Program-made: the position numbers and the translations under genes
Notes under the pieces: model-generated
Told to the model about the DNA's origin: nothing
Database searches by the model: none
What the model saw: the letters and a program-made list of their open reading frames with translations, nothing else
In this document: positions 16,036-18,101 of the stretch, one piece after another
Layout: each line of letters opens with the position of its first letter
Numbering within the stretch: position 1 is the stretch's first letter
From: a virus
Reading direction: 5' to 3' (one strand)
Virus record (IMG/VR): IMGVR_UViG_3300036785_000296
Coordinates: 1 to 64,000 of that record
Length of the DNA stretch: 64,000 bases

Positions 16036-16199
16036 TGGGACGCAAGGTGCATCGGGGCGTGATGATCGAGCATGAGCCGCCGCTGATGCGGCGCGAGGAC
16101 AAGAAGCCGCCGCCGCCCGGCGACCGCGTGCTGAAGGGCAAGGACGGCTCGAAGTACTTCATCGACGGCGCGTCGGGGCGCGTGACGAAACTGAGCTAG
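16035..16199 (+). CDS. Hypothetical basic protein, 54 aa
   Basis: The ATG at 16035 shares a base with the upstream TGA. The protein is Lys/Arg/Pro-rich (RREDKKPPPPGDRVLKGKDG) with a terminal DGSKYFIDGASGRVTKL strand segment. It ends in a 4-base convergent overlap with the leftward cassette. No terminator is visible at the junction. Confidence 0.55.
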   Translation: MGRKVHRGVMIEHEPPLMRREDKKPPPPGDRVLKGKDGSKYFIDGASGRVTKLS

Positions 16200-16432
16200 A
16201 GCCAGCTATCCTTGATCGACTTGCCGCTCACCATGATCACCGGCGCTCGGTAGGCCCGGCCCATGTGAAAGGCGCAGTAGTTGGCGATGCCGCAGGGTCG
16301 GCCGCAGAAGCCGAAGCCCGGCATGCTCGGCGTGCCGATGGGCCACTTGCAGACGCCGCGCCGCAAGCTCTCGACGCTGGCGATGGTGGGCGTCAGCTCC
16401 GGCGCCAGCGGCTGGAGGAGCTTGCCGGACAA
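16196..16432 (-). CDS. GcrA-type C-terminal (sigma-70-interacting) domain protein, 78 aa
   Basis: The protein carries the signature of the C-terminal domain of the alphaproteobacterial cell-cycle regulator GcrA: C28, then KWPIG at 29-33, a FCG box (42-44) and NYCAFHMGRAY (51-61). In Caulobacter this domain binds domain 2 of sigma-70, while a separate N-terminal helix-turn-helix binds DNA; that helix-turn-helix is absent here. The start is inferred to be TTG at 16432, just after the RuvC-like gene's stop, with AGG 5 bases upstream. As a stand-alone sigma-binding domain it could redirect host transcription (inference). It is the last gene of a four-gene leftward cassette. Confidence 0.65.
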   Translation of the reverse strand: MSGKLLQPLAPELTPTIASVESLRRGVCKWPIGTPSMPGFGFCGRPCGIANYCAFHMGRAYRAPVIMVSGKSIKDSWL

Positions 16433-16433
16433 C

Positions 16434-16940
16434 TCAGCCTCGCAACTTGAACGCTGGCCGGAACTGCATCGCCGCCTCCGGGGCCAACAATCGAAGAGTG
16501 GAGAGCCATACGCCGAAAGCATCGGCCTCGTCGTGGTAAGAGATGGTGAGCCCGTACTGCTGCGCCGCCGCCACCATCTCGGGCTTCGAGGCACGCCCGC
16601 CGCCGGTCAGCGCGATCTTCACCTGTTGGGGCGACACGCGGCGGCAGGGCATCTTCTGCTCGCGGCAGACGAGGCCGGTGATCGCCTGGAGGCCGAAGGT
16701 GATCTCCACCGACGCATGGCTGGTGAAGCGCGCCAGGACCGGGCGCTCCCAGACGATGAGGGTCGGGTGGAAGTCGCGGACGACGCCGGTCAGCCAGTGG
16801 TGGTGCGCCTCGAAGAACGGCTCAAGCTCGGCGCCGCCGCCGCGATGCGGGTTCTGCCGCGAACCCACGGCTGGGAGGCGGCTTCCGTCGCCGACACACC
16901 AACCTGTTCGAGTACCATGATCCAATGCGAGCAGTCTCAA
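16434..16940 (-). CDS. RuvC-like Holliday-junction resolvase
   Basis: A 168-residue RNase-H-fold nuclease. Catalytic acids are in place: D7 in LLALDHGTRTGW, E65 in LIVWERPVL, and the DEAD/DEADAF cluster at 137-142. KIALTGGGRASKPEMVAAA is the usual substrate-loop segment. It would resolve branched replication or recombination intermediates before packaging. ATG at 16940 overlaps the stop of the HNH gene upstream by 4 bases. Confidence 0.85.
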   Translation of the reverse strand: MRLLALDHGTRTGWCVGDGSRLPAVGSRQNPHRGGGAELEPFFEAHHHWLTGVVRDFHPTLIVWERPVLARFTSHASVEITFGLQAITGLVCREQKMPCRRVSPQQVKIALTGGGRASKPEMVAAAQQYGLTISYHDEADAFGVWLSTLRLLAPEAAMQFRPAFKLRG

Positions 16941-17440
16941 GCGACCCTCGCGAACTCCCGGTGATGCTCCTGCGCGGCGGCGACATAGGCCGCGTGCGCC
17001 GCTTCAGCGGTCTTGAAGTAGCCGAGCCAGAGACGCTTGCCGGGAGCGATCCGTATCTGGGCCTGATAGACGCCGCGCCACGCGACGAAGGTCACGCCCT
17101 TGAAGCCCGACGTATTGCCGGGCATGCGGCCCTTGTTCTGACCGTTCTGCGACTTGGTCGCCTCGCGCAGGTTGGCCCAGCGGTTGTTGAGCGTGTCGGC
17201 GTCGTCGTGATCGGCCTCCGGGTCCGGCCACCGTCCCGTCATGTAGAAGAACGCCAGCCGGTGGGCACGATACTGGCGCCCATCGATACCGATCACCCAG
17301 TAGGTCTGGTTGTGGCCGCGCCAGAGGCCGCCTGCCTCGCAGCCACGCAGGCCCGGCTGCCCCCGCAGCCATGTGAACACGCCCGTCTCCGGGTCGTAGT
17401 GCAGCAGCCGCTTCAGCCGAACCTGCGTGAGGCCCGTCAC
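16937..17440 (-). CDS. HNH homing endonuclease with AP2-like domain
   Basis: N-terminal HNH_3 nuclease: RAHRLAFFYMTGRWP (H60), then EADHDDADTLNNRWANLREA (H78, N85/N86). The C-terminal AP2-type DNA-binding domain runs from about 110 to 165 (TSGFKGVTFVAWRGVYQAQI, KRLWLGYFKTAEAAHAAY). This pairing is the standard free-standing phage homing endonuclease. It is inserted between the RMF-like gene and the RuvC-like gene with 4-base overlaps on both sides. Confidence 0.9.
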   Translation of the reverse strand: MTGLTQVRLKRLLHYDPETGVFTWLRGQPGLRGCEAGGLWRGHNQTYWVIGIDGRQYRAHRLAFFYMTGRWPDPEADHDDADTLNNRWANLREATKSQNGQNKGRMPGNTSGFKGVTFVAWRGVYQAQIRIAPGKRLWLGYFKTAEAAHAAYVAAAQEHHREFARVA

Positions 17441-17946
17441 GACACCGGACGGAGCTTGGTGGCGTTCGCTTCCTGGCTACGGTTCCATCCTGACATCCAG
17501 TCGGTCATGCGCTCGGGCGGGCAATCGGATGGCGGCTTGCCGACCGCGCCCTTGCCGGTGGTGCCTGCCAGGAACCCACGCAGCTCCCAGTCGGCTCTGG
17601 CGCGCTCGGTCGGTTCCATCTCGGGGAACAGCTCGATCTGCGCCTCTTCGGGCCGCTTCGGCAGCAGCTCGGCCAAGTCCATGTAGCGCAGCAAGGTCTC
17701 GATGAAGTCCCTGATCTCCTGCGGCTCCCAGGTCAGCATCTCCATGATCTGGTCGGCGTGCTGCAACTCGATGCCCGCCGCCTTGGCCTCCTTGCGGATT
17801 TTCTTGCGGTCGGCGAGCGAGAGGTCGCGCTTGCCGTCCGCCTCGATCATCCGCTTCAGGTGACGGCGGAAGACGTCCTGCGTGATCCCGTTGGTGTCGT
17901 CGCCCATCGGCAGCTCGCGGTCGTCTTCGCTCAGCTCTCTGGCCAT
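17437..17946 (-). CDS. Phage protein with ribosome-modulation-factor-like C-terminus, 169 aa
   Basis: First gene of the leftward cassette; GGAGAG lies 4 bases before the ATG at 17946. The N-terminal half is helical (DVFRRHLKRMIEADGKRDLS, ADRKKIRKEAKAAGIELQHA). The C-terminus (119-160) has ADWELRGFLAGTTGKGA, a Pro/Cys spacer and ERMTDWMSGWNRSQ, which resembles the Rmf motif (GxxAGxxG... W..GW...Q) seen at the end of several alphaproteobacterial phage proteins. True Rmf dimerises ribosomes; a ribosome-targeting role is plausible but unproven. Confidence 0.55.
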   Translation of the reverse strand: MARELSEDDRELPMGDDTNGITQDVFRRHLKRMIEADGKRDLSLADRKKIRKEAKAAGIELQHADQIMEMLTWEPQEIRDFIETLLRYMDLAELLPKRPEEAQIELFPEMEPTERARADWELRGFLAGTTGKGAVGKPPSDCPPERMTDWMSGWNRSQEANATKLRPVS

Positions 17947-18101
17947 GTCGCTCTCCGGGTTTGGCCCCCGCGCAATGTCGCGCCGCAGCCGGGCGCCGTC
18001 CACGCATCAAGGGCACGGCTCCACAGTTTATTTTGATATCGTCATTGACAGAAGTGATGTCACAAACCTATGTGATCGCACATGAGCAGCGGAGCACCGA
18101 T
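17947..18101. promoter_or_regulatory. Divergent promoter region
   Basis: Between the leftward cassette and the rightward gene at 18102. A perfect -35 TTGACA (18045-18050) is followed after 18 bases by TATGTG (18069-18074), fitting a rightward promoter. TTGATATC (18033-18040) is a likely operator half or partner. No clear leftward promoter is seen, though one must serve the cassette. Confidence 0.45.

What the first reader, a model, noticed from the sequence alone, without database searches (positions are those of the whole stretch)
16196..16432. Stand-alone phage copy of the sigma-70-binding domain of GcrA
The 78-residue product carries the C-terminal GcrA signature (C28, KWPIG, FCG, YCAFH) but lacks the N-terminal helix-turn-helix. 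In Caulobacter GcrA this C-terminal domain contacts sigma-70 domain 2 and the N-terminal part binds methylated GANTC DNA. A free sigma-binding domain would be able to bind holoenzyme without promoter choice, either blocking host GcrA or steering RNA polymerase to phage promoters. I know of no described phage system built on this domain alone.
Basis: partly seen in the sequence, partly recalled or inferred. Interest (0 to 1): 0.8.

Follow-up and report, generated by a model that had tools for sequence, protein, structure and literature searches.

The report
Phage gene encoding free GcrA sigma-binding domain
A phage of alphaproteobacterial type carries a small gene that keeps only the half of the bacterial cell-cycle activator GcrA known to grip RNA polymerase's sigma factor, without the DNA-reading half; the same stripped-down form turns up in several unrelated phages, so it is probably a tool for interfering with host transcription, but nobody has tested it.

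Summary
Window 16196-16432 (-) is a 78-codon gene (TTG start, GAGG five bases upstream, third-codon-position G+C 0.95, last gene of a minus-strand operon behind a RuvC-like resolvase). Its product matches Pfam GcrA only over profile positions 100-147 of 155 (E 4.5e-10). It matches by sequence (E 1.8e-9) and by predicted fold (TM 0.83 to the target, 1.3 A) the Caulobacter GcrA sigma-interacting domain (SID) solved on sigma-70 domain 2. No GcrA helix-turn-helix exists anywhere in the 74-kb record. Nearly all phage and bacterial relatives examined carry that N-terminal domain.

The domain-only form is not unique. I found it in two viral contigs next to methyltransferase genes, a viral contig with a lysine-rich tail, a prophage-like stretch beside tRNA-Lys, and a Hyphomicrobiaceae genome; two similarly short viral proteins appear in the BFVD library. 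No paper in the searched library describes it. Best reading: a free SID that binds host sigma-70 domain 2, most likely competing with host GcrA. Binding and effect are inferred, not shown. This is a new variant of a known kind. Separately, the phage genome lacks many six-base palindromes almost completely and is poor in GANTC.

The parts
16196..16432 (-). Stand-alone GcrA sigma-interacting-domain gene, 78 aa, TTG start
16244..16393 (-). Stretch matching Pfam PF07750 GcrA profile positions 97-147 of 155 (C28, KWPIG, FCG, YCAFH)
16438..16441 (-). GAGG, Shine-Dalgarno-like, five bases before the TTG start
   Evidence: sequence
16433..16594 (-). In-frame upstream extension (GTG at 16594), judged not coding in this frame: it overlaps the resolvase gene and encodes no helix-turn-helix
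16434..16940 (-). RuvC-like Holliday junction resolvase gene directly upstream; one base separates its TGA stop from the SID start codon
   Evidence: phrog_159 E 1.8e-22
16937..17440 (-). HNH endonuclease gene with a sub-threshold AP2 match, same operon, four-base overlap with the RuvC-like gene
   Evidence: PF13392 E 1.3e-13, PF00847 E 1.9e-5
17437..18003 (-). 188-aa ORF of unknown function, probable first gene of the minus-strand operon

Best explanation
The gene makes a free GcrA-type sigma-interacting domain. It folds as the GcrA SID (model), is expected to dock on domain 2 of the host's primary sigma factor within RNA polymerase holoenzyme (inferred from homology), and, having no DNA-binding domain, most likely fills the docking site so that host GcrA cannot arm the polymerase. 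That would lower transcription of host genes that depend on GcrA and CcrM methylation during infection (inferred). Docking may also change open-complex formation generally (speculative).
For: Sequence match to 5yix_B and 7ye1_G, E 1.8e-9 and 5.1e-9. AlphaFold model with residues 21-60 at mean pLDDT 90-94; Foldseek best PDB hits are GcrA SID on sigma-70 domain 2 (5yix_B, E 6.4e-4, TMt 0.83, rmsd 1.3) and the two GcrA transcription complexes. All invariant family residues kept. A review states that GcrA residues 108-173 bind sigma domain 2 and residues 1-45 bind methylated DNA, with an unstructured linker between (PMC7403470), so the SID is an independent module. No helix-turn-helix elsewhere in the record. 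No sigma-70 region 2 match in the record (the control rang in 10 genomes). Stand-alone SIDs recur in unrelated neighbourhoods, and one pair is under purifying selection (dN 0.13, dS 0.41). GANTC is scarce in the phage (19 observed, 79 expected), so losing GcrA activity should cost it little.
Against: No binding or expression data exist. The conserved D of the WPIGDP motif is T here (also T in L025 and in the second SID of L021). The window protein sits on a long branch (1.15) and no close homologue was found, so selection on this copy itself could not be measured. GANTC scarcity may only reflect the general palindrome avoidance. The interface with sigma could not be modelled. The host is unknown; Caulobacterales are only suggested by the best SID matches.
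Confidence: 0.45

Rival explanations
1. The free SID is a general sigma-domain-2 cofactor of the Crl or RbpA type: it strengthens sigma-core binding or open-complex formation without reading DNA, helping phage promoters as well as or instead of blocking GcrA.
For: Crl, RbpA and GcrA all contact overlapping parts of sigma around domain 2 and promote open complexes (PMC7403470); Crl activates without touching DNA (PMC6917491). L268 joins a SID to a lysine-rich tail that could give non-specific DNA contact.
Against: The same eLife paper notes that GcrA, RbpA and GrgA, unlike Crl, need their DNA-contacting domains to activate. The window protein has no such tail.
Confidence: 0.25
2. It is a decaying remnant of a full-length phage gcrA whose N-terminal half was lost, for example by rearrangement next to the HNH and RuvC genes; it is no longer functional.
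For: Most viral relatives are full length; the window copy is on a long branch; its start is a TTG; an HNH endonuclease lies two genes upstream.
Against: Third-position GC 0.95 with a clean frame, a Shine-Dalgarno-like GAGG, tight operon spacing, every invariant residue kept, and similar domain-only genes recur elsewhere.
Confidence: 0.15
3. It is one half of a split regulator: another phage protein supplies DNA binding and recruits sigma through the SID in trans.
For: In L289 and L290 the stand-alone SID gene overlaps an upstream gene that is, or looks like, a DNA methyltransferase, echoing the GcrA-CcrM pair. The window operon holds a possible AP2 (DNA-binding) domain.
Against: No partner gene is shared between the stand-alone cases, and the record has no PF01555 methyltransferase. 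HNH-AP2 genes are common selfish elements.
Confidence: 0.1

Closest known systems
Caulobacter crescentus GcrA, sigma-interacting domain (PF07750 C-terminal part; PDB 5yix, 7ye1, 7ye2)
   Same: Same domain by sequence and predicted fold; all invariant residues kept
   Different: No N-terminal DNA-binding domain, no linker; encoded by a phage as a 78-aa gene
Full-length phage GcrA homologues (phiCbK gp222 and relatives, Agrobacterium phage Atu_ph08 gp5, Rhizobium, Brevundimonas and Synechococcus phages)
   Same: Phage-encoded SID, proposed to redirect host transcription (PMC3556154, PMC6630229)
   Different: All of those keep an N-terminal helix-turn-helix-like part
Phage sigma-appropriation proteins AsiA (T4), Gp39 and P7
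   Same: Small phage proteins that act on the host polymerase; AsiA and Gp39 bind the sigma subunit
   Different: They act at sigma domain 4 and the beta flap (PMC7403470); this one would target domain 2 and shares no family with them
Stand-alone SIDs found here: L290:3001-3285, L289:2968-3252, L268:2941-3339, L214:14973-15143, L167:1504-1755; and two short BFVD proteins, A0A6J5LHS5 (77 aa) and A0A7S5QV09 (71 aa)
   Same: SID without GcrA helix-turn-helix (for the two BFVD entries only length and fold match were seen)
   Different: Different neighbours (methyltransferases, tail genes at tRNA-Lys, chromosomal genes) and different tails

Membership tests
GcrA (PF07750) | Profile match over the curated cut-off | tested here: met
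   40.6 bits against 26.9, but only profile positions 100-147 of 155
GcrA (PF07750) | C-terminal sigma-interacting domain fold with the conserved C-WP-G, FCG and YC..H residues | tested here: met
GcrA (PF07750) | N-terminal helix-turn-helix DNA-binding domain | tested here: not met
   absent from the gene and from the whole record
GcrA (PF07750) | Binding to sigma-70 domain 2 | not testable with these tools
   needs a binding assay or complex model
GcrA (PF07750) | Recognition of m6A-methylated GANTC promoters | not testable with these tools
   the domain responsible is missing, so not expected
GcrA-CcrM regulatory pair | CcrM-type methyltransferase (PF01555) in the same genome | tested here: not met
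   no match in the 74-kb record; one lies directly upstream of the stand-alone SID in L289
Phage sigma-appropriation factors (AsiA, Gp39) | Binding to sigma domain 4 or the beta flap | not tested
   no sequence or fold relation to these families was reported

The most novel reading that the evidence does not exclude
Phages of alphaproteobacteria have repeatedly cut GcrA down to its sigma-binding domain and use it as an anti-activator against the host's methylation-dependent cell-cycle transcription: a class of small phage proteins acting through sigma domain 2 rather than domain 4. In one lineage it is paired with a methyltransferase gene.
Probability: 0.35. Interest if true: 0.75.

Novelty: new variant of a known kind. 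Interest (0 to 1): 0.5.

Why it matters
The phage sigma-repressors listed in the review read here act at sigma domain 4. A recurrent phage protein reduced to a domain that docks on sigma domain 2 would be a different point of attack, aimed at a transcription step that links DNA methylation, the cell cycle and replication in alphaproteobacteria. It would also offer a ready-made natural tool for separating what GcrA does by docking on the polymerase from what it does by reading methylated DNA.

Tried and rejected
Close relatives of the window protein, the RuvC-like gene or the AAA_24 gene in viral contigs: none found. Terminase relatives at 91 and 89% (L029, L030) are short contigs that do not reach this gene, so no synteny or dN/dS for this copy. 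Hidden or frameshifted helix-turn-helix near the gene or elsewhere in the record: none. L078 looked stand-alone but is a frameshifted full-length gene, with the helix-turn-helix in another frame; L110, L151, L152, L154, L221, L278 and G473 are cut by contig ends; L121 is masked; L257 is frameshifted; L220 and L286 do have N-terminal helix-turn-helix-like parts. A stand-alone SID in an annotated isolated phage: none found by tblastn in INPHARED; RHph_Y1_10, Pam5, Mwe-JY13 and ct2G2228 have longer proteins. A tree to count origins: too few columns; it needs about four changes among the five labelled rows (the window was not among the labelled rows), with two forced by well-supported branches. 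The primary GcrA structure papers are not in the library, so sigma contact residues could not be checked. The PF00940 search for a phage RNA polymerase was uninformative because its control rang nowhere.

Full report
Observation. The gene at 16196-16432 (-) is real. The 78-aa reading starts at a TTG with GAGG five bases upstream, one base after the stop codon of a RuvC-like resolvase gene (16434-16940). That gene overlaps an HNH endonuclease gene (16937-17440) by four bases, which in turn overlaps a 188-aa unknown ORF (17437-18003) by four bases. GC by codon position is 0.53/0.56/0.95 in the 78-aa part; neighbouring genes have 0.83-0.93 at the third position. The possible upstream extension (0.50/0.80/0.63) is just the resolvase gene read in another frame. 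Pfam gives GcrA, E 4.5e-10, positions 100-147 of 155. The best PHROG matches are phrog_12262 and phrog_16311, unknown function, also only over their C-terminal parts.

Identity of the domain. phmmer against the PDB finds only GcrA chains (5yix_B E 1.8e-9; 7ye1_G E 5.1e-9). Foldseek ranks first the Caulobacter GcrA SID in complex with domain 2 of sigma-70 (E 6.4e-4, TMt 0.83, 1.3 A over 45 columns), then the two GcrA transcription complexes. C28, W30, P31, G33, C43, G44, Y52, C53 and H56, invariant in the alignment, are all present. The C/C/C/H set suggests a metal site; that is inference. The usual D of WPIGDP is T here, as in L025 and in the second SID of L021.

What is missing. In Caulobacter GcrA, residues 1-45 bind methylated DNA, 46-107 are an unstructured linker and 108-173 bind sigma domain 2 (PMC7403470). 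The window gene corresponds to the last part only. A helix-turn-helix profile from 112 relatives finds nothing in the 74,004-base record (best E 0.26), although it finds the domain in 182 of 205 SID-bearing frames of relatives. The record also has no PF01555 (CcrM-type) methyltransferase match and no sigma-70 region 2 match.

How unusual is it? Among phage records, phiCbK-like Caulobacter phages, Brevundimonas phage Bajun, Synechococcus phages Ssp-JY42 and Yong-M4-211, Rhizobium phage RHph_X2_24 and Agrobacterium phage Atu_ph08 carry full-length proteins of 169-235 aa. Of 80 viral contig loci, classified by helix-turn-helix profile and by eye, three are clear stand-alone SIDs: L290 (94 aa), L289 (94 aa) and L268 (132 aa from its inner ATG, with a lysine-rich tail). 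All are over the Pfam cut-off and only in its C-terminal part. In a sample of 81 Hyphomicrobiales genomes, one held a clean 83-aa stand-alone gene (L167) and one a roughly 56-aa SID between phage tail genes (including a tape-measure-like protein) and tRNA-Lys (L214), which I read as a prophage edge. In 80 Caulobacteraceae genomes the short cases looked into were contig ends or a full-length gene. BFVD lists viral proteins of 71 and 77 aa with the same fold. The form is therefore rare but recurrent, and it predates this report in databases, though no paper describing it was found.

Neighbourhoods differ: RuvC and HNH (window); methyltransferase genes (L289: PF01555, E 9.7e-28, overlapping the SID start by four bases; L290: an upstream gene with an NPPF motif but no Pfam match, and a C5 cytosine methylase downstream); phage end (L214); chromosomal (L212). 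The L289/L290 pair has dN 0.13 and dS 0.41, so at least that domain-only gene is kept by selection. A tree of 119 SIDs has too few columns to fix the number of origins but does not group the five stand-alone rows that were labelled; the window copy, not labelled in that count, falls in an unresolved cluster with Caulobacteraceae accessory copies and phage copies.

Mechanism. Shown here: domain identity, absence of the DNA-binding domain, coding character, recurrence. From established knowledge: the GcrA SID docks on sigma domain 2, and GcrA joins RNA polymerase through it. Inferred: the free domain docks likewise and, lacking DNA binding, displaces GcrA from holoenzyme. The phage has little stake in GcrA-dependent promoters: GANTC occurs 19 times where 79 are expected from a maximal-order Markov model. 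This is weakened by a wider pattern: many six-base palindromes are nearly absent (14 of the 33 with expectation above 15 are at 10% or less of expectation, against 2 of 1594 non-palindromic six-mers), as expected of anti-restriction avoidance (PMC6286503, listed; abstract only).

Verdict. The protein is not a GcrA in the full sense, because a defining domain is missing; it is a stand-alone member of the GcrA SID domain family and a new variant of the known theme of phage GcrA homologues.

Noticed in passing
whole 74-kb record, window 1-64000 and L028: Extreme avoidance of particular six-base palindromes: CGATCG 0 of 76 expected, CCGCGG 0 of 57, CAGCTG 0 of 53, CCCGGG 0 of 40, GAGCTC 0 of 39, CTCGAG 1 of 68, while GCGCGC, GGCGCC, CGGCCG and GATATC are near expectation. 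Near relatives L029 and L030 show a similar overall deficit (0.43 and 0.47).
   Followed up: partly
L289:1994-3252 and L290:2423-3285: Gene pair: a methyltransferase gene (PF01555 in L289; NPPF-motif ORF without Pfam match in L290) overlapping a stand-alone SID gene, reminiscent of a minimal CcrM-GcrA pair.
   Followed up: partly
L268:2941-3339: SID followed by a lysine- and alanine-rich, histone-H1-like tail in a viral contig.
   Followed up: partly
L021:3685-5634: A phage with a full-length GcrA gene and, just downstream, a second SID at the C-terminus of a much longer protein with a different N-terminal part.
   Followed up: partly
BFVD entry A0A6J5R6V5: A 290-aa phage protein named DnaA C-terminal that matches the SID fold, a possible DnaA-SID fusion; sequence not examined.
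   Followed up: no
control list: The GcrA family search also rings above cut-off in the archaeon Sulfolobus acidocaldarius, unexpected for an alphaproteobacterial family.
   Followed up: no
L078:2200-3400: Phenylobacterium sp. J426 accessory gcrA is split by a frameshift in a long-read assembly; probably a sequencing error.
   Followed up: partly
window 16937-17440: HNH endonuclease with a weak AP2 domain inside the same operon, possibly a homing element.
   Followed up: no
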